This document shows positions 11,956 to 64,000 of a stretch of DNA of 64,000 bases, piece by piece. Both the position numbers and the translations under genes were made by a program. How positions within the stretch are numbered: the stretch's first letter is position 1; each line of letters starts with the position of its first letter. This stretch comes from Paenarthrobacter sp. PH39-S1 (GTDB lineage: Bacteria; Actinomycetota; Actinomycetes; Actinomycetales; Micrococcaceae), in assembly GCF_030063245.1 (NCBI RefSeq), contig NZ_JASISR010000021.1:1-64000 (forward strand), written 5' to 3'. Below the pieces are notes generated by a model. It saw only the letters and a program-made list of their open reading frames with translations. It was not told the origin of the DNA and searched no databases.

Positions 11956-12534
11956 TCAGTCACCGTCCTTCAGGCTCAAGAGCATGGCCTGGACCAGCGC
12001 TTCCTGCAGCCAGGAGACGAAGTTGTAGACCAGCGCCAGGTAAGAGTCGACGTCGTCGGCCTGGGACCAGTCCTGCAGCTGGTGAATCCGTTCGGCATCC
12101 GCTTCGCCACGGATGCTGAGCCGTTCGGCGAGCACAAGCCGGACGTCGTTGAGCGCCATGGCCCAGTGCTTGGCACGCTCGCCATCCAGGACCAGCTTGT
12201 CCGAGTCCAGGTCCAGGGCAGCGGCCCGCAGGGCACCGATTTTGGTCTCCCGCAGCGAGCGTTCGGTCAGCTGCCGGAACTCCAAGGCGGCGCCGGCAGT
12301 TGCCGCGTCCACGGCCTTGACCACATCGGGAAGCAACCGCTTGAGGGCCGGATCCGTGGGAACGCTCACGTCCATGTCCAGCCCGATCATCGCAGCCAGC
12401 GGGTCTGCATGGGCCGGGGAATCCGGTTCCAGCATGTCCACAATGTCAGCAAAAAGATTGCGGAGCAGGTCGCGCTCGGCATGCTCCAGCTGCCCGGTGA
12501 TTCCCTTGCGGCCGTACTTGAAGGCTTTAGCCAC
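11956..12534 (-). CDS. DUF2017 family protein
   Basis: The 192-residue product begins MAKAFKYGRKGITGQLEHAERDLLRNLF and is mostly helical and acidic. This matches the actinobacterial DUF2017 family by order and content. Function is unknown; the family almost always sits right after clpS, as here with a 3-bp gap. A link to ClpS-dependent protein degradation is therefore a reasonable inference, but nothing catalytic is visible. The sequence is regular, with no frameshift. Confidence 0.8.
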   Translation of the reverse strand: MAKAFKYGRKGITGQLEHAERDLLRNLFADIVDMLEPDSPAHADPLAAMIGLDMDVSVPTDPALKRLLPDVVKAVDAATAGAALEFRQLTERSLRETKIGALRAAALDLDSDKLVLDGERAKHWAMALNDVRLVLAERLSIRGEADAERIHQLQDWSQADDVDSYLALVYNFVSWLQEALVQAMLLSLKDGD

Positions 12535-28475: not shown

Positions 28476-30236
28476 ATGAGTACACAAGGAATGGCAGGCG
28501 TGATGGACACCGTGGAACTGGCGGCGGCCGTTGACGTGGTCAGGTCCTTCGTTGCCGGTTATGCCGGCAGCGCCCTGGTAATGACGAAGAACTCGGTGCT
28601 GGCAAGCGCCGACCTGCTGGAGAGAATGTTCCGCTACGTGCAGCAGGGCCAAATCATTGCCGCGCACGCCATAGACACCCAGAATCTCCACGCCACCGGG
28701 GATACTGACACCGCCTTTACCTGGGACAGCCCGGTAACCGCCTGCGACGCCGATGCCCATAATGATGCCGACACTACAGAAGTGCCGGCCCCGTTCGGCG
28801 GTGAGCCGGCCTCGTTCGGCTGGGACACGGCTCCGGCGGGGGAGCCAGCTGCACCCGACACGACTGCGCCGGACACGACTGCGCCGGACACCACTGCGCC
28901 GGACACCACTGCGCCGGACACCACTGCGCCGGACACCACTGTGGCGGGAGCAGTGTCCGGCGGAAGCCCTGGGTCCCACGGGACCGGCCAGGTCGTTGCT
29001 GCAGCTGCTGCTCCCGCGGGTTCCCTCGTCGGCGCCGTGCCCGCTCACGGGGAAACGGAGGCGATGCCGTCTCCAGGGACGGGCCCGGCGATTCGGGCGG
29101 GACGGAAGAAGTCGCCGTACCGCAGTGTGCAGGAATTCCTGGTCTGCCGGCTAAGGATCTCCTACTCGGAAGCGAACCGCCGGGTGTTCCTGGGCCGGGA
29201 TCTTCTGCCTGCACTGTCCCTTACTGGGGAAATGATTGCGCCGAAGTTTCCGGCCCTGGCAGCTGCGGCGGCCAGCGGGGACGCATCCATTGAGTCCCTG
29301 ATCAGGGTCTCCCGTGCCCTGCACAAGATGAAGCTCAAAACCGACCCGCACTCCCTTACCATCATCGAGGGCGCACTCGCCGAGCAAACGAGGCTCACGG
29401 ACCCGGATTGCCTGGATCCGCAGATCCGTCAATGGGTACTGGGGGTCGACCAGAACGGGACCTCACCGACAGAAACCGAGCTGCAGGCCAGGCAGGGCGT
29501 GCACTACAAAGGCCTGTACCGCGGACTCCACCACCTGGAAATCCATGCGGACCAGACACAGTATGAGACGCTACTGACGGTGATGAATACCGGCACGAAC
29601 CCGCGGTCCTTGACAGTCGTGGAAAGCGCGATGGATACCCGCACGCGGCAGCAACGCCTGCTCGATGCGCTGGTGACCGGGTGTGGTATCGCGCTACAGA
29701 CCGGTGACCTGCCTGAAGCGGGCGGTCACCGGCCCAACATCATGGTAACCATCGATTACCATGAACTCTTCAACCGGCTGGAGACCGGGCGCTCGACGGG
29801 CCGGTTCGCCTTCACGGGGCCCGTTGACGCCGGCAACATCCGCCGGCTTGCCTGCGATGCCAATCTGATCCCGATCGTGCTCGGCGGGAGTGGCCAGATT
29901 CTCAACTACGGGCGCCGGCGACGATTCCATACCCGGGCCCAGCGTCTGGCGATCATTGCAAGGGACAAAGGCTGTATTCGGCCCGGCTGCACGATGCCCG
30001 CAGCATGGACCGAAGTCCATCACATCGATTTCTGGGAAAACGGCGGGGAAACCGATGTCAACACAGGAGCTTTAACGTGTTCCTTCGATCACCATGTCGT
30101 CCATGCTGGTCAGGCGAAGATCATCCTCATCGATGACATACCTCATTGGGTGGCATCTCCGGAGGTCGACCCTGCCCAAAAACCGCGCCGCAACAGATTC
30201 TTCAATCCACCCGCCCTCTCCGGTCCCGTGCCGTGA
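28476..30236 (+). CDS. DUF222/HNH endonuclease-domain protein (13E12-type)
   Basis: The 586-residue product has a DUF222 region (about 205-440, with QEFLVCRLRISYSEANRRV) and an HNH nuclease domain near 515-555: CIRPGCTMPAAWTEVHHIDF and NTGALTCSFDHHVVH, with zinc-type cysteines and the catalytic His pair. Actinobacteria carry many such genes; their biological role is unclear, and some are linked to mobile DNA. Residues 126-155 are six perfect APDTT repeats encoded by a 15-bp minisatellite. A G12 tract lies upstream. Confidence 0.88.
   Translation: MSTQGMAGVMDTVELAAAVDVVRSFVAGYAGSALVMTKNSVLASADLLERMFRYVQQGQIIAAHAIDTQNLHATGDTDTAFTWDSPVTACDADAHNDADTTEVPAPFGGEPASFGWDTAPAGEPAAPDTTAPDTTAPDTTAPDTTAPDTTAPDTTVAGAVSGGSPGSHGTGQVVAAAAAPAGSLVGAVPAHGETEAMPSPGTGPAIRAGRKKSPYRSVQEFLVCRLRISYSEANRRVFLGRDLLPALSLTGEMIAPKFPALAAAAASGDASIESLIRVSRALHKMKLKTDPHSLTIIEGALAEQTRLTDPDCLDPQIRQWVLGVDQNGTSPTETELQARQGVHYKGLYRGLHHLEIHADQTQYETLLTVMNTGTNPRSLTVVESAMDTRTRQQRLLDALVTGCGIALQTGDLPEAGGHRPNIMVTIDYHELFNRLETGRSTGRFAFTGPVDAGNIRRLACDANLIPIVLGGSGQILNYGRRRRFHTRAQRLAIIARDKGCIRPGCTMPAAWTEVHHIDFWENGGETDVNTGALTCSFDHHVVHAGQAKIILIDDIPHWVASPEVDPAQKPRRNRFFNPPALSGPVP
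28851..28940. repeat. Six 15-bp in-frame repeats (APDTT) in the HNH gene
   Basis: Units of GC(A/G)CC(C/G)GACAC(C/G)ACT run six times without interruption and encode APDTT. They lie in the linker before DUF222. Copies three to six are nearly identical, which indicates recent expansion. Confidence 0.8.
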
Positions 30237-50240: not shown

Positions 50241-51491
50241 TTACCGAGGAGCCGTCGGCCGTGGGATTGCTTCCTCATCCGCCGGCGGCAGCCGTTGCCC
50301 GGCAGGCGACCGAGACGCATCGCCGGCAGCGGAAGGCTGCACCGGTGGCATGACAGCGTCGGCCACGGCAACGGGGGCGTCCGCGGCAACGGGGGCGTCC
50401 GCGGCAACGGGGGCGTCCGTGGCAACAGGTGCGCCCGCGGCAACAGGTGCGCCAGCGGCAACGGGGGCGTCCGCGGCACCAGCGGCAAGTCCGGTCAGCT
50501 CGTCCGACTGAGGTTCCTGCACCACATAGGGTTCCGTCTCGGTCGCCGGTGATTCCGGCTCCGTCGGGGCGTTCGGTACGGCAGCGTCTGTCGGTTCGAC
50601 GTGTGTTTCTCCCCCGGCAGCGCCTTCCAGCTCCACGGGAGTGTCCAGCCCTACCGGGCTTTCCGGCACCGCCGGTAGCGCGGCGTCGGCTAGCGGGACT
50701 GCCGCGGCTTCGGCTAGCGGGACTGCCGCGGCTTCGGCTAGCGGGACTGCCGCGGCTTCGGCCGTCACCGGCTCTGCGCCGTCGTCGGCCGTCACCGGCT
50801 CTGCGCCGTCGTCGGCCGTCACCGGCTCCTCACCCAGCCCAACAATGGACGGCACAACCTCGCGCAGCCGCTCCAAGGAGATAGCCCCGGCCCGCACCAC
50901 GCGCAAAACCTCCGCGGTCGCGTCAACGATGGTTGATGGCAGCGGCTCGGTACCCTCGAGCGGCCTGAAACCGGCCTCCAGGTAGACCTCTACTGATTCA
51001 GCCAGCTGGACCCGGGCTTCCGACGCAGTCTGTGCCGCGGCCTGCCCCGTCCGGTTGGCCGACGAAACCGCCAGCGGACCGGTAATGGTCAGCAGATCCA
51101 AGGCGAGTTTGTCGTCGGGCATGCGCAGGGCAACGGTGCCCATCGTGTCACCCAAGTCCCAGGTCAGGGACGGCTGCGCATGGCAAATCAGCGTAAGGCC
51201 GCCGGGCCAGAAGTGCTCTGCGAGCTTGCGGGCATCCGCGGGAACGTCCGCCGCGAGCCCGTCCATCGTGTTCAGCCGCGGAATCAGCACCGGCGGCGGC
51301 ATGGAACGGCCGCGACCCTTGGCCGCCAGCAAGGTGGCAACCGCCTGCGGGGAAAACGCGTCCGCGGCGATCCCGTAGACGGTGTCCGTGGGCATGACAA
51401 CAACCTGCTTGGCGGCGATCGCCTTTTGCGCGTGGGCCAGTCCCTCCGCGCGCTGTTCATTGGAGGTGCAGTTATAGGATGTGGTGCTCAC
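50241..51491 (-). CDS. L-threonylcarbamoyladenylate synthase with repeat-rich C-terminal extension
   Basis: Residues 1-225 are a complete YrdC/Sua5 domain: VVVMPTDTVYGIAADAF, the ATP/threonine site region KGRGRSMPPPVLI, GGLTLICHA, TGPLAVSSANRTGQ and PSTIVDAT. It makes threonylcarbamoyl-AMP for the t6A modification of tRNAs. The 190-residue C-terminus is low complexity (Ala/Val/Pro/Glu), with three kinds of in-frame repeats. It is absent from standard homologues (about 220 residues) and is probably disordered. The gene order prfA-prmC-sua5 is typical for Actinobacteria. Confidence 0.92.
   Translation of the reverse strand: MSTTSYNCTSNEQRAEGLAHAQKAIAAKQVVVMPTDTVYGIAADAFSPQAVATLLAAKGRGRSMPPPVLIPRLNTMDGLAADVPADARKLAEHFWPGGLTLICHAQPSLTWDLGDTMGTVALRMPDDKLALDLLTITGPLAVSSANRTGQAAAQTASEARVQLAESVEVYLEAGFRPLEGTEPLPSTIVDATAEVLRVVRAGAISLERLREVVPSIVGLGEEPVTADDGAEPVTADDGAEPVTAEAAAVPLAEAAAVPLAEAAAVPLADAALPAVPESPVGLDTPVELEGAAGGETHVEPTDAAVPNAPTEPESPATETEPYVVQEPQSDELTGLAAGAADAPVAAGAPVAAGAPVATDAPVAADAPVAADAPVAVADAVMPPVQPSAAGDASRSPAGQRLPPADEEAIPRPTAPR
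50367..50476. repeat. 18-bp repeats in the sua5 extension
   Basis: About six units of GCAACGGGGGCGTCCGCG encode ADAPVA/AGAPVA on the minus strand. Four copies are nearly identical, which suggests recent duplication. Confidence 0.8.
50692..50830. repeat. 24-bp and 27-bp repeats in the sua5 extension
   Basis: Three copies of GGCTAGCGGGACTGCCGCGG (24-bp period, AEAAAVPL) adjoin two to three copies of a 27-bp unit starting TCACCGGCTCTGCGCC (EPVTADDGA). Both keep frame. Confidence 0.8.
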
Positions 51492-51509: not shown

Positions 51510-52700
51510 TCATCGCCATTCCCCGGTGCCTGCGCTCCGGACTCCGCTGGTGGCGCGGTCCCTGCCGTTCAGGTCGCGGTGGGTGCGGATGTCAATCCAG
51601 CAACCGGAAGCCGCCAGCAGGGATGCCATCTGCTCCGCCTGAACTTCCGCGTGTTCCAGCACAAAGTATCCGCCCGGTTTGAGCAGCCGCGCCGCTGTGG
51701 CGGCCGCGGCCGCGGGCAGTTCCATGCCGTCAGCGCCGCCGCCGTAGAGGGCAAGCTGCGGATCATGGTTGGCAACCTCGGGCTCGCGCGGAACCGCGCC
51801 CGCGGGGATGTACGGCGGGTTGGACACCACCACCTCACACCGACCGTCCAGCTCCGGAAAGGCTGTGCGCAGATCGCCTTGGACGAGCGACACCGGGAGC
51901 GCGGCCAGGTTCCGCTGCGCGAAGGCGTAGGCCTTGGCACTCAGTTCCACGGCGTATACCCGCGCCCGGGGGACCTCATATGCCACCGATCCTGCGATGG
52001 CTCCGGATCCCGTGCCCAGATCGACGACCACCGGCGCGCCGGGCATGTCCGGTGAGTCCTGCACGTCCTGGCCGCCCGGCACGCCGGGGCCACGTGCTTC
52101 ACTTGAGCCGTATGACCCTGTTGCACTCGACGCTTGCGCCAGCACTTCTGCCAGCCGGTCCACGGCCAGCTGCACCACAGATTCCGTCTCCGGGCGCGGG
52201 ATAAAGACCCCAGGCCCCACGGCTAATTCAAGGTGGCGGAAGTACGCCGTGCCGGTCAGATGCTGCAGCGGAACCCGCCGAGCCCGCTGCTCGACCAGGG
52301 CCCAATAGTTATTCGGCTCGGGGGCATCCCCAAGCAGCAGGGCACGGAGCCTCCCGAGGCCGACTCCCAGCAGATGATCCGCCAGCAGCTCGGCGTCAAC
52401 TCGAGGCGAGGGAACGCCGGCAGCACTGAGTACCGCGGTGGCCTCGGCGACCGCTTGGGCCAGCGTGCGCTGAGGCTCCGGAGGGTGTTTACCCGCCGAA
52501 GTCCGGGCTGGCGCCTTGGTCTCCTGCCAGTCCCGGGCCGCGTCGACTGCGTCGCCGACCCGGGTCGCGTCCAGGGGGTTACCAGCCCGGGTCGCGTCCA
52601 GGGGGTTACCAGCCCGGGTCGCGTCCAGGGGGTTACCAGCCCGGGTCGCGTCCACCGGGCTGGCGGCCTGCTCCGGGATATCCGCGTTGTCCGCCGGCAT
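51510..52700 (-). CDS. prmC: Release factor glutamine methyltransferase with N-terminal repeats
   Basis: The 396-residue product has the HemK/PrmC core (about 82-390): LADHLLGVGLGRLRALLL, the FIPRPETE motif, VVDLGTGSGAIAGSVA and the substrate motif VVSNPPYIP. It methylates the GGQ glutamine of release factors; prfA is directly upstream (the TAA of prfA abuts this ATG). The first 80 residues are extra, including three perfect copies of a 9-residue repeat (DATRAGNPL). A second insertion (about 200-225, SSATGSYGSSEARGPGVPGG) lies before the AdoMet motif. Confidence 0.93.
   Translation of the reverse strand: MPADNADIPEQAASPVDATRAGNPLDATRAGNPLDATRAGNPLDATRVGDAVDAARDWQETKAPARTSAGKHPPEPQRTLAQAVAEATAVLSAAGVPSPRVDAELLADHLLGVGLGRLRALLLGDAPEPNNYWALVEQRARRVPLQHLTGTAYFRHLELAVGPGVFIPRPETESVVQLAVDRLAEVLAQASSATGSYGSSEARGPGVPGGQDVQDSPDMPGAPVVVDLGTGSGAIAGSVAYEVPRARVYAVELSAKAYAFAQRNLAALPVSLVQGDLRTAFPELDGRCEVVVSNPPYIPAGAVPREPEVANHDPQLALYGGGADGMELPAAAAATAARLLKPGGYFVLEHAEVQAEQMASLLAASGCWIDIRTHRDLNGRDRATSGVRSAGTGEWR
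52559..52650. repeat. 27-bp perfect repeats in prmC
   Basis: A 27-bp unit containing GGTCGCGTCCAGGGGGTTAC starts at about 52562, 52589 and 52616 without differences and encodes DATRAGNPL. A fourth, diverged copy (DATRVGDAV) adjoins. Identity at the DNA level shows very recent expansion. Confidence 0.85.
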
Positions 52701-54045: not shown

Positions 54046-56527
54046 CTATTTGTCGTCGTCGGAGCGCGCACCCAGCGTCGTCTTCTGCACCTGCATGAGG
54101 AACTCAACGTTTGACTGAGTTTCACGCATCTTGGACATCAGTAATTCAAGCGACTGCTGCTGCTCGAGTCCGGACAGGACCCGGCGCAGCTTCCACATGA
54201 TCTTAACCTCATCCGGGGACAGCAGGTTTTCCTCGCGGCGCGTACCGGACGCGTTCACGTCCACGGCCGGGAAGATCCGCTTATCCGCCAGCTGGCGGGA
54301 CAGACGGAGCTCCATATTTCCGGTGCCCTTGAACTCCTCGAAGATGACCTCGTCGGCCTTGGACCCGGTTTCCACCAGTGCCGTGGCCAAAATGGTCAGC
54401 GAGCCGCCGTTTTCAATATTGCGGGCCGCACCGAAGAAACGCTTCGGCGGGTACAGCGCGGCAGCGTCGACACCACCGGAGAGGATGCGTCCGGAGGAAG
54501 GAGCGGAGTTGTTGTACGCGCGGCCCAGTCGGGTCATCGAATCCAGCAGCACCACCACGTCCATGCCCATTTCCACCAGGCGCTTGGCGCGCTCGATGGA
54601 GAGCTCGGCAACCTGCGTGTGGTCGCCGGAGGGACGGTCGAAGGTGGAGGCAATGACCTCACCCTTGACGGTGCGCTGCATGTCGGTGACTTCTTCCGGA
54701 CGCTCGTCCACCAGCACCATCATGAGGTGGACCTCAGGATTATTTATGGTGATGGCGTTGGCGATTGCCTGCAGGATGAGCGTCTTTCCGGCCTTCGGCG
54801 GGGAGACGATCAGTCCGCGCTGCCCCTTGCCGATTGGGGCGACCAGGTCGATGACGCGGGGACCAATCTTCTTGGGGTCCGTTTCCAAGCGCAGTCGCTC
54901 GGACGGGTACAGCGGAACCAGCTTGGAGAACTCGACGCGGTCCTTGAGCTCCTCCGGTGTCTTGCCGTTCACGCTGGTCACGCGGACCAGAGCGTTGAAC
55001 TTCTGACGTGCGCTCTGACCCGTGTTCTGGCTGCGGTCCTCGCCGTCGCGAGGTGCCCGGATAGCGCCGACGACGGCGTCGCCCTTGCGCAGGTTGTACT
55101 TCTTCACCTGCGCAAGGGAGACATAGACGTCGTTGGAACCCGGCAGGTACCCGGAGGTCCGCACGAATGCGTAGCTGTCGAGCAGGTCCAGGATGCCGGC
55201 GACGGGCAGCAGCACGTCGTCCTCGGTCACCTCAACATCGTCGAAGTCCGGTCCCTGGCTGCGGCCGCGGCGCCGCTCATTGCGGTCGTTCCGATCATTA
55301 CGGTCACGGAAACGGTCATTGCGCGGGCTGCTGTCCTGGCCGCCGGAACGGTCGTTGCGGTCCCGACGGGTACGGCGGTTGCGGCTGTTGCGCGATCCGT
55401 CGTCATCGTCGTTGCGCAGCTCGCCGCGGTTATTGTCCCCGCGCTGCTCGACGCGGCCATTGTCGCCGCGCTGCTCGTTGCGGTTGTTGTCATTACGGCC
55501 ACTGCGCTGATTGCGCTGGCCGTCCTGACCGTCCTGGTTGCGCTGGCTCTCCTGGTTGCGCTGGCCGCGTTGGTTGCGCTGGCCGTCCTGACCGGTTTCG
55601 GTGCGCTGGTTACGCTGATCGGCGCCCTCGCTGGAATCGGCCGCGGAGTTTTCCTGCTGCTGCGCCGGTTCCTCGGTGGCCTTCGACGCGCTGTTCTGCC
55701 CCTCGGCCTGCGCGTCGGCGCGGGCCTCGCCGTTGCGGCGGTTACGGGTGCGCTGGGGACGGCGGTTGCCCTCGTTCTGCGCGGTGTCGGTGTTCTGCGC
55801 GGTGTCGGTGTTCTGCGCGGTGTCGGTGTTCTGCGCGGTGTCGGTGTTCTGCGCGGTGTCGGTGTTCTGCGCGGTGTCGGTGTTCTGCGCGGTGTCGGTG
55901 TTCTGCGCGGTGTCGGTGTTTCTGCGCGGCTCCGTCGTGCTGCGCAGCACGTCCGCCGGCTACACGCCCGTTGGATGCACGCCCGTTGGATGACCTGCCG
56001 TTGGACGTGTTGTCGCTGTCGCCCTGTACCGTCGGCTCGGCTGCGGCGCCGGCCTGCTCGGCCCCGGCGGCGATGACGCCATCGCTCACGGCGCGGCGGC
56101 TGCGGCCACGGCCACGGGCCGGGCGCTCGGCGCCGGCTTCGGTCTGCGCTTCGGGAGCGGCTTCGCCCACGGTTGCGGCCTCGGTTGTCTCGGCGACGGG
56201 GGCCGCCTGCTGATGCTGGGCCGCTCCGTTCCGGCTGCTGCGTGCGCCGGCACGCTTGCCGGGCTCACGCTCTGCTGCTCCGGCCGTCTGGGCAACGGCG
56301 GGCTTCGCGGCGCGGTCCGCCACGGACGAGCCCCGCTGATGGTCAGAAATCGCGGATACGAGGTCACCCTTGCGCATCCGGGAACCGCCGGTGATACCGA
56401 GCTGACCGGCGAGCGCCTGAAGCTGCGCCAGCTTAAGGCCGGCCAGTCCACTGCTCTTGGCCGGTGCTGCATCAGCTGAATTGACGGTATCGCTCAAACC
56501 TGCAGTCAGGTTTGTGGTGTCTGTCAC
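54046..56527 (-). CDS. rho: Transcription termination factor Rho, split by a one-base frameshift
   Basis: From GTG 56527 (GGGGGAAGGA, 6-nt spacing) the frame encodes the Rho N-terminal domain (SSGLAGLKLAQLQALAGQLG, SRMRKGDLVSAISDHQ) and a Glu/Ala/Arg-rich linker. It then enters an 18-bp repeat in the wrong frame (KHRHRAEHRHRAE) and would stop near 55742. The rest is in the +1 frame: NTDTAQ repeats, an Arg/Asn/Asp-rich RNA-binding insert, the cold-shock-like domain (ILDLLDSYAFVRTSGYLPG), Walker A SPPKAGKTLILQAIA, LLDSMTRLGRAYN (Walker B region) and the C-terminal ATPase. One extra A at 55919-55921 (minus sense CAGAAACACC instead of CAGAACACC) explains the break. Joined, it makes 826 residues. 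GTG 55950 could start a 634-residue form lacking the N-terminal domain. A sequencing error is the main alternative. Confidence 0.85.
55775..55918. repeat. Eight perfect 18-bp repeats in rho
   Basis: TTCTGCGCGGTGTCGGTG is repeated eight times without a mismatch; on the minus strand each unit encodes NTDTAQ. A ninth partial unit starts TTTCTGCGC with one extra T (plus strand), which causes the rho frameshift. Changes in copy number would keep frame; only the homopolymer change breaks it. Confidence 0.9.
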
Positions 56528-60463: not shown

Positions 60464-62158
60464 TTAGGCCCCTAAATCGCGTGCCAGTAAGTCGTCTTCT
60501 GTTTCTCCGCGCACTATCAGCCGTGCGGCACCGTCCCGGACCGCCACCACCGGTGGCCGGGGAACGTAATTGTAGTTACTGGCCAGTGCCCAGCAGTACG
60601 CGCCCGTCCCGGGAACCGCGAGCAGATCCCCCGCTGCGACGTCATCGGGCAGATATACATCTCTAACAACAATGTCACCGCTCTCGCAATGTTTGCCCAC
60701 CACTCGGGACAGTGCAGGCGCTGCCGTCGAGCTGCGGCCGGCCAGCACCGCCGAATATTCCGCGTCGTAGAGCACCGGTCGGGCGTTATCGCTCATACCG
60801 CCGTCCACCGACACATAACGCCTTGGCCGCGTAACCTGAGCTTGATCAATAGGGGCAGTGGCAGGCATTTCCACGTTAACCGTCTTCAGCGTGCCCGCCT
60901 CGTACAGCGTGAAGGTGGTGCTGCCCACGATGGCGCGGCCCGGTTCGATCGAGATCCGCGGGGCGGTGATATCGAGGGCCGTGCAGGTTTTACGGACGAC
61001 GGCGGCCATGGCCTGTGCAATCTCGGCGGCCGGGCGCGGGGTGTCCGCTGCCGTATAGGCGATTCCGTAGCCGCCACCCAGATCCAGCTCCGGCAACGTG
61101 ATGGCGTACTTGCTCTGCATGCGCGCCAGGAAGGTCAGCAACCGCTCTGCGGCAAGCTCAAAGCCTTCCGGTTCAAAGATCTGCGACCCGATGTGGCAAT
61201 GCAGTCCGAGCAGTTCGATACCCGGAGCCGCTGCCGCCATCGCCACGGCCTGTTCCGCAGCGCTCATTGCCTCGGGGCCACCCCATGCAGCGGACAGGCC
61301 TTGTGTAGCTGAGGTAGCCGCGGTGGGGCCGATTCCCGAATTTCGCCCCGTCCCGGGCACGTCAGATACCGGTGAATCTGCGGCCATGGAGAGGCCGAAC
61401 TTCTGGTCCTCGTGGGCGGTGGCGATGAATTCGTGCGTATGTGCGTGTACTCCAGGGGTCAGCCGCAGCAGCACCTTCGCACGCTCGCCGCGTCCGCCGG
61501 CGATGGCCGCCAGCCGCTCCAGCTCGGGCAGGCTGTCCACCACGATGCGGCCCAGCTTCATGTCCAGCGCACGGTTGATCTCGGCGTCGGACTTGTTATT
61601 GCCGTGGAGGCCCAGCTTGTTTCCGCTCAGCCCGGCGCGCGCCGCCACGGCCAGCTCACCGCCAGAGCAGGTGTCCAGGCGCAGGCCCTCGCTGTCCACC
61701 CAGCGGGCGATCTCGATGCTCAGGAACGCCTTGCCCGCGTAATAGACGTCCACCCCGCCGCAGATGTCCGCGAAGGCGGCCTCAAAGGAATCCTTGAAAT
61801 CCCGGGCACGCCGGCGGAAGTCCGCCTCGGAGACCACAAAGAGCGGCGTCCCGAATTCCTTTTTCAGGTCCGCCACGGTGACCCCCGCCGCGGTGAGCTG
61901 ACCATCAGACCCCCGGACGACGTCGTGCGCCCACATCACCGGCGTGAGCTCGTTGACGTCAGTCGGGTACGGCAGCCAAGCCGGCGCCAGCTCGGACCCG
62001 GACGATGCCCGATTCACAGGCATTGTCGGATCAGGCATTGTCGGATCAGCCACTGTCGGATCAGGCGCTGTCGGATCAGGCGCTGTCGGATCAGGCGCTG
62101 TCGGATCAGGCGCTGTCGGCACTGGCACTGCCGGATTCACGGATATCCCCTCAGCCAT
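60464..62158 (-). CDS. lysA: Diaminopimelate decarboxylase with N-terminal repeats
   Basis: The 564-residue product has the PLP lysine in VDVYYAGKAFLSIEIARW, plus GLHGNNKSDAEI, GLHCHIGSQIF, LDLGGGYGI, ISIEPGRAIVG and DGGMSDNARPVLYDAEY. It makes lysine from meso-diaminopimelate. It is longer than usual (about 470) because of an N-terminal repeat region (about 13-47, APDPT units). A second insertion (about 262-300, SPVSDVPGTGRNSGIGPTAA) lies near the active-site barrel. It lies 6 bp after argS and before hom. Confidence 0.94.
   Translation of the reverse strand: MAEGISVNPAVPVPTAPDPTAPDPTAPDPTAPDPTVADPTMPDPTMPVNRASSGSELAPAWLPYPTDVNELTPVMWAHDVVRGSDGQLTAAGVTVADLKKEFGTPLFVVSEADFRRRARDFKDSFEAAFADICGGVDVYYAGKAFLSIEIARWVDSEGLRLDTCSGGELAVAARAGLSGNKLGLHGNNKSDAEINRALDMKLGRIVVDSLPELERLAAIAGGRGERAKVLLRLTPGVHAHTHEFIATAHEDQKFGLSMAADSPVSDVPGTGRNSGIGPTAATSATQGLSAAWGGPEAMSAAEQAVAMAAAAPGIELLGLHCHIGSQIFEPEGFELAAERLLTFLARMQSKYAITLPELDLGGGYGIAYTAADTPRPAAEIAQAMAAVVRKTCTALDITAPRISIEPGRAIVGSTTFTLYEAGTLKTVNVEMPATAPIDQAQVTRPRRYVSVDGGMSDNARPVLYDAEYSAVLAGRSSTAAPALSRVVGKHCESGDIVVRDVYLPDDVAAGDLLAVPGTGAYCWALASNYNYVPRPPVVAVRDGAARLIVRGETEDDLLARDLGA
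62019..62119. repeat. 15-bp in-frame repeats in lysA
   Basis: Seven units of GTCGGATCAGGCGCT type repeat in tandem and encode PDPTA/PDPTM. Copies in the middle are identical. They lie just after the start codon, before the conserved domain. Confidence 0.8.
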
Positions 62159-63823: not shown

Positions 63824-63912
63824 GGGTGGGCCGTCCTGGCGCCCGTAATCGCGTCTGTTCCTGCGGATGGCCTCGACAGCGGCGGTGTCAAAGCGTCTGC
63901 TCTACGTCGAAA

Positions 63913-64000
63913 GTACGGCGGCGAATGTACGGCCGGGAACGTACGGCCGGGAACGTAAGGCGGCGAATGTACGGCCGGGAACGTACGGCCGGGCTGCCGC
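63913..64000. repeat. 14-bp tandem repeat cut by the window end
   Basis: Six 14-bp units run from 63913: GTACGGCGGCGAAT, twice GTACGGCCGGGAAC, then GTAAGGCGGCGAAT and the same pair again. This makes a 42-bp higher-order repeat. No gene is in this part. The array lies upstream of argS and resembles the words of the repeat at 17232-17370. Confidence 0.75.

What the first reader, a model, noticed from the sequence alone, without database searches (positions are those of the whole stretch)
55742..56527. rho is interrupted by a single extra base at the edge of an 18-bp minisatellite
The Rho N-terminal domain (from GTG 56527) and the repeat/RNA-binding/ATPase part (to 54046) are in different frames. 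All eight 18-bp units agree, and only the junction unit has TTT where the others have TT, so a one-base insertion is the exact cause. Rho is essential in several Actinobacteria. If the sequence is right, cells must use +1 frameshifting, transcriptional slippage at the A run, or an internal start at GTG 55950 that gives Rho without its N-terminal domain. A reversible frame switch in a global terminator would be new.
Basis: partly seen in the sequence, partly recalled or inferred. Interest (0 to 1): 0.8.

Follow-up and report, generated by a model that had tools for sequence, protein, structure and literature searches.

The report
Frame break in rho, probably artefact
In this Arthrobacter-like draft genome the gene for the transcription terminator Rho is split into two reading frames by one extra base at the edge of a short repeat, and because the assembly was ambiguous at that repeat this is more likely an assembly error or a private recent mutation than a new kind of switch.

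Summary
On the minus strand the Rho N-terminal domain (GTG 56527 to stop 55742) and the RNA-binding/ATPase core (54046-55950) are in different frames, and the change maps to a TTT at 55919-55921, at the edge of an 18-bp array. The switch reading is not supported. Of 148 other Micrococcaceae genomes 142 have both halves in one frame, 5 have them on separate contigs and 1 has a 100-N gap between them. All 47 array rows in rho of 80 relatives have units divisible by three. There is no long homopolymer and no conserved internal start, and both halves are under purifying selection. Contig ends share at most 127 bases, as a k=127 short-read assembly leaves, and the array holds the only same-strand repeated 127-mers of this 86-kb contig. 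Best reading: sequence or assembly artefact (about 0.6). Main rival: a real, recent, private one-base insertion (about 0.3). No reads were available, so it is not settled. Interest is low.

The parts
55742..56527 (-). N-terminal frame of rho (GTG start, 261 codons, stop 55744-55742)
   Evidence: the 20 bases upstream of the start are the same in 6 of 6 relatives examined
56342..56446 (-). Rho_N domain (PF07498), residues 28-62 of the N frame
   Evidence: E 7.4e-9
55774..55929 (-). 18-bp minisatellite, unit NTDTAQ in the core frame and HRHRAE in the N frame; perfect run 55774-55920 (147 bp)
   Evidence: a 21-bp stretch of it matches exactly in 1 of 120 family genomes, this one
55919..55921 (-). 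AAA (TTT on +) where the other units have AA: the frame break
54046..55950 (-). core frame of rho, 634 codons from GTG 55950 to stop 54046
54952..55203 (-). Rho RNA-binding domain (PF07497)
   Evidence: residues 250-333
54247..54864 (-). Rho ATPase domain (PF00006)
   Evidence: residues 363-568
55948..55950 (-).
   Evidence: -5.9 kcal/mol, 21% of 3686 ATG/GTG sites as strong
55213..55215 (-). GTG just before the RNA-binding domain with a strong Shine-Dalgarno match, not conserved
   Evidence: -11.3 kcal/mol (1% of sites as strong); GTG at this place in 13 of 79 relatives, GTG plus strong match in 3 of 79

Best explanation
The split is most likely a sequence or assembly artefact. The genome looks like a short-read de Bruijn draft with k=127. 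The 18-bp array in the disordered linker of rho is just too long for that k, so the graph had a loop there, and the consensus at the edge of the loop carries one base too many. In the organism rho would then be one ordinary frame with a Rho_N domain, a long hydrophilic linker and the RNA-binding/ATPase core, like its relatives. Shown: the split, its absence from assessable relatives, the 127-base signature and the over-long repeat. Inferred: that the extra base is not in the DNA, and the step that introduced it.
For: Among 50 contig ends, 19 pairs share 30 bases or more; 16 of them share 123-127 bases that end at, or within 4 bases of, both termini, and none shares more than 127. In the 86,239-bp contig the only 127-mers that occur twice on one strand are three inside this array, and none recurs as a reverse complement. 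The perfect run is 147 bp = 129 + 18, above the 144 bp that k=127 resolves at period 18; no other perfect tandem run (periods 6-69) in 375 kb of this genome exceeds its own limit. Of 148 other family genomes, 142 have Rho_N and core in one frame; in 5 the two lie on different contigs and in 1 (G038) a run of 100 N in the linker separates them, so assemblies fail here in other genomes too. Of 80 named loci, 76 have Rho_N in the frame of the core and 4 are cut at a contig edge. Both halves are constrained: dN/dS 0.050 over 75 codons of the N domain and 0.054 over 404 codons of the core against G004. Rho is stated to be essential in Micrococcus luteus, of the same family (passages of PMC8828861; taxonomy).
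Against: A collapsed array changes the length by multiples of 18 and does not by itself add one base; in a k-mer graph the extra base should have read support unless a later polishing or gap step made it (general knowledge). AAA is not an error-prone homopolymer. Three contig-end pairs share 51, 79 and 111 bases away from the termini and do not follow the 127 pattern. The breaks in other genomes are not clearly more frequent than contig counts predict: 5 seen, 1.5-2.3 expected, and two of the five core contigs begin inside the core. Other broken-looking genes in this genome lie in non-repeated sequence and look like real pseudogenes, so real frameshifts do occur here.
Confidence: 0.6

Rival explanations
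1. A real, recent, strain-private one-base insertion. The cell makes an N-terminal fragment, and the core, if made at all, from an internal start (GTG 55950 or GTG 55215), giving Rho without its N-terminal domain.
For: k-mer assemblies seldom invent a base (general knowledge). The genome holds other broken-looking genes. GTG 55215 has a strong Shine-Dalgarno match and would start just before the RNA-binding domain. M. tuberculosis Rho lacking residues 76-219 is active in vitro (passages of PMC4499133).
Against: Rho is stated to be essential in M. luteus. The GTG at 55215 is a start codon in only 13 of 79 relatives, with a strong match in 3. No trace of relaxed constraint in either half, although a very recent mutation would leave none. 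An M. tuberculosis rho deletant without the subdomain did not complement E. coli rho, but the full-length gene did not either (passages of PMC4167861).
Confidence: 0.3
2. The frame is restored in the cell by +1 ribosomal frameshifting or transcriptional slippage, so that full-length Rho is made at some level.
For: Both frames are open over about 200 bp, and both halves are conserved.
Against: The longest runs in the overlap are CCCC and AAA, and no stop codon marks a slip site at the break. The two-frame layout was not found in any of 142 assessable family genomes.
Confidence: 0.03
3. A reversible phase switch of rho driven by the repeat.
For: An array of near-identical units, found exactly only in this genome of 120 searched, lies at the break.
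Against: Unit of 18 bp; 47 of 47 array rows, in 34 of 80 relatives, have units divisible by three; only AAA at the break, no contingency-type tract.
Confidence: 0.02

Closest known systems
Actinobacterial Rho with a large disordered N-terminal insertion (M. luteus, M. tuberculosis Rho)
   Same: Order of domains: Rho_N, long hydrophilic linker, RNA-binding domain, ATPase; the insertion of actinobacterial Rho is described as rich in Arg, Asp, Asn and Gly and as disordered (passages of PMC4167861 and PMC8828861).
   Different: In this assembly the first part is in another frame; in the 142 assessable family genomes it is not.
Phase-variable contingency genes with coding repeats (recalled)
   Same: A tandem repeat inside a coding region next to a frame break.
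   Different: Unit divisible by three and no long homopolymer, so copy-number change keeps the frame.
Assembly artefacts at tandem repeats longer than the k-mer (recalled)
   Same: A perfect repeat above the k=127 limit exactly at the anomaly.
   Different: The usual outcome is a wrong copy number, not one extra base.
Programmed +1 frameshift genes (prfB type, recalled)
   Same: Two overlapping open frames.
   Different: No slippery run or stop at the shift, and no conservation of the layout.

Membership tests
Rho transcription terminator | Rho_N, Rho_RNA_bind and ATPase domains in gene order | tested here: met
   on two frames
Rho transcription terminator | one open frame across the three domains | tested here: not met
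   met in 76 of 80 named loci, the other 4 cut at a contig edge
Phase-variable repeat locus | repeat unit not divisible by three, or a long homopolymer | tested here: not met
   18-bp unit, runs of at most four bases in the overlap
Phase-variable repeat locus | mixed frame states in a population | not testable with these tools
   no reads available
Programmed frameshift gene | two-frame layout conserved in relatives | tested here: not met
   both halves in one frame in 142 of 142 assessable family genomes
Programmed frameshift gene | slippery run or stop codon at the shift | tested here: not met
   no stop at the break and no run above four bases in the overlap
Programmed frameshift gene | stimulating RNA structure | not tested
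   no folding was run
Assembly artefact at an over-long repeat | perfect repeat longer than the graph can resolve at the anomaly | tested here: met
Assembly artefact at an over-long repeat | raw reads disagree with the consensus | not testable with these tools
   no reads available

The most novel reading that the evidence does not exclude
The extra base is real and fixed, and the strain lives with a two-piece Rho: a separate N-terminal RNA-binding tail and a core made from an internal start, or a low level of full-length Rho through recoding, so that termination is globally retuned by a repeat-edge indel.
Probability: 0.06. Interest if true: 0.7.

Novelty: not a real feature. Interest (0 to 1): 0.13.

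Why it matters
If real, it would show that a global terminator held to be essential in a relative can be cut into two pieces and still serve the cell, and would give a natural test of what the disordered N-terminal part of actinobacterial Rho does. As it stands it is mainly a caution: between Rho_N and core, 5 of 148 other family genomes have an assembly break and 1 has a run of 100 N, so a frame break found there needs checking against reads before any biology is built on it.

Tried and rejected
Repeat copy number as a frame switch: rejected, units divisible by three (the 47 are TRF rows, and overlapping rows may describe one array). Transcriptional slippage: judged unlikely, longest runs CCCC and AAA. 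Conserved internal start giving a short Rho: rejected, GTG before the RNA-binding domain in 13 of 79 and with a strong match in 3 of 79; one of 80 lacked the motif used. A second rho elsewhere: not found; the other two matches have 31% and 22% identity, but contigs under 3 kb came back as N. Loss of constraint: not seen; dN to G003 is 0.0254 for this genome, 0.0248 for G004 and 0.0266 for G002, though the core's dN/dS to G004 and G002 (0.054, 0.053) is above that between those two (0.026). A second split rho: G038 looked like one (frames 724 and 267 aa on one contig), but a run of 100 N lies in its linker, so it cannot be judged. The count of 142 rests on comparing the open-frame lengths by eye: 141 are equal; G063 differs (1187 with a stop read through, against 801), and its two matches are 903 bases apart, so in one frame. 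A generally bad assembly: tblastn against syntenic relatives covered 53.5 kb of the window and gave 17 frame-change rows, 2 of them at rho and both on antisense frames. That screen did not list rho's own sense frame, so its silence is weak evidence. The reverse control gave 16 rows. I examined 11 of the 17 by codon-position GC and a helicase case by its ORFs and did not resolve each of the rest. A coding-potential detector on 375 kb flagged 7 places, rho among them; by eye three others look broken, one is a gap between two genes flagged at like sizes in G002 and G004, and two are false alarms. It flagged 4 places in 195 kb of relatives, all within 10 bases of an upstream stop. First settings found nothing; three scripts failed and were rewritten. 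Literature: rho with frameshift and Arthrobacter, with phase variation and tandem repeat, with programmed frameshifting: 0 papers each in the held library, which lacks most subscription journals.

Full report
What is there. The finding's coordinates hold. On the minus strand, GTG 56527 opens a 261-codon frame with a Rho_N domain that ends at 55742; the frame 55950-54046 carries the Rho RNA-binding and ATPase domains. The genome, G000, has 4,649,047 bases in 135 contigs, 99.4% completeness and one rho. The core frame is closed upstream of 55962 and the N frame is closed at 55744, so the change lies between. At its downstream edge the array continues into QNEGNRRP, which relatives L018 and L019 have in nearly the same form in their single frame, so the array belongs to the core frame and the break is at its gene-sense 5' edge, where one unit reads AAA for AA.

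How unusual is it. Of 398 relatives found, the best 80 were kept; 76 have Rho_N in the open frame of the core and 4 are cut at a contig edge. In 149 family genomes including this one I searched the core and, separately, the 75-codon N domain. Of the other 148, 142 have both in one frame; in 5 (G032, G033, G075, G105, G147) the two halves lie on different contigs; in one, G038, they seemed to be in different frames, but a run of 100 N lies in the linker there, so that case cannot be judged. It could be an assembly gap or a withheld stretch; 100 N is the usual size of a scaffold gap (general knowledge). This genome is thus the only one with a demonstrable split. A 21-bp stretch of the array matches exactly in this genome alone of 120; 17 others have scattered hits with one or two mismatches.

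Is it a switch. In 34 of 80 relatives the rho frame holds tandem arrays (2.5 copies or more, 90% match or more); all 47 TRF rows have unit lengths divisible by three. The linker grows and shrinks in frame, and a change of copy number cannot move the frame. No run longer than four lies in the overlap. The proposed start GTG 55950 has a Shine-Dalgarno energy of -5.9 kcal/mol, matched by 21% of 3686 ATG/GTG sites; the true start has -10.7, with identical upstream bases in 6 of 6 relatives checked. GTG 55215 scores -11.3 but is not conserved. The anti-Shine-Dalgarno letters used were recalled.

Is either half decaying. Against G004 dN/dS is 0.050 for 75 codons of the N domain and 0.054 for 404 codons of the core; over all pairs of seven genomes the core ranges from 0.026 to 0.089 and the N domain from 0.050 to 0.332. 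A relative-rate look at the core (dN to G003: 0.0254 here, 0.0248 for G004, 0.0266 for G002) shows no excess. This fits an artefact or a very recent mutation equally.

The assembly. Fifty contig ends (300 bases each) were compared. Sixteen pairs share 123-127 bases that end at or within four bases of both termini, none shares more than 127, and three pairs share 51, 79 and 111 bases elsewhere. I read this as the mark of a de Bruijn assembly with k=127 (general knowledge), hence of short reads. In the whole contig only three 127-mers occur twice on one strand, all in the rho array, and none recurs as a reverse complement. The perfect run is 147 bp, 129 + 18, just over the 144 bp that k=127 can resolve at period 18. 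No other perfect tandem run in the 375 kb examined exceeds its own limit. So the break sits at the edge of the one place in the contig where the graph looped on itself. This fits an artefact, but a long array is also where real slippage is likeliest, and a collapsed repeat alone would not add a single base. It does not settle the case.

Other broken-looking genes. A detector that found rho flagged six other places in 375 kb. By eye three look broken: a GH3-type gene on the same contig beyond the window, whose fragment matches open frames in G001 and G003 and nothing in G002 and G004; a nitrate-reductase-like frame that changes frame and then runs out beside a nirB-like frame, with an open homologue in G001; and a gene of unknown function on C80. 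The names are recalled from the look of the sequences and were not searched against family libraries. They show that real frame breaks are plausible in this genome.

What is known. Actinobacterial Rho proteins carry large N-terminal insertions that raise RNA affinity and are predicted to be disordered, and Rho is stated to be essential in M. luteus and M. tuberculosis (passages of PMC8828861). Deleting the insertion from M. tuberculosis Rho leaves an active enzyme with an RNA-binding defect and less early termination (passages of PMC4499133); its N-terminal 229 residues bind RNA on their own (passages of PMC4167861). Disordered parts of Rho are also linked to condensates in Bacteroides and to a prion-like domain in Clostridium (search listings and starts of abstracts only). 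A two-piece Rho is therefore not absurd, but nothing here favours it.

Verdict. Artefact about 0.6, real private mutation about 0.3, recoding or switch about 0.05, the rest unassigned. Raw reads decide it.

Noticed in passing
window 52559-52654 (ORF 51510-52700, -): A perfect 27-bp in-frame array (DATRAGNPL repeated) in the N-terminal part of a PrmC-like methyltransferase ORF (name recalled from the sequence) downstream of rho.
   Followed up: no
window 28849-28941, 50679-50762, 52559-52654, 55774-55929, 62024-62119: This genome seems rich in strong tandem arrays: 10 with TRF score 140 or more in 375 kb, against 1 in 195 kb of syntenic relatives; overall array density is alike (69 and 72 per Mb).
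   Followed up: partly
L117 18673-19996 (contig C49, about 82.7-84.0 kb, beyond the window): A GH3-type glycosidase-like gene that looks broken by a stop and frame changes; its fragment matches open frames in G001 and G003.
   Followed up: partly
L141 11032-14640: A nitrate-reductase-like frame that changes frame near 12471 and ends beside a nirB-like frame, as if a deletion had fused the two; open homologue in G001.
   Followed up: partly
L150 6473-7515: A gene of unknown function on contig C80 whose coding signal changes frame.
   Followed up: partly
window 63909-63993: A tandem array with a 14-bp unit, not divisible by three, and a 42-bp higher order, near the window end.
   Followed up: no
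window 55213-55215: In-frame GTG with a strong Shine-Dalgarno match right before the Rho RNA-binding domain; GTG at this place in 13 of 79 relatives.
   Followed up: yes
L207 (G038) and L197-L201: Other assemblies fail at rho too: a run of 100 N in the linker of G038, and in five genomes Rho_N and core on different contigs; three of the five core contigs begin in the linker and two inside the core.
   Followed up: partly
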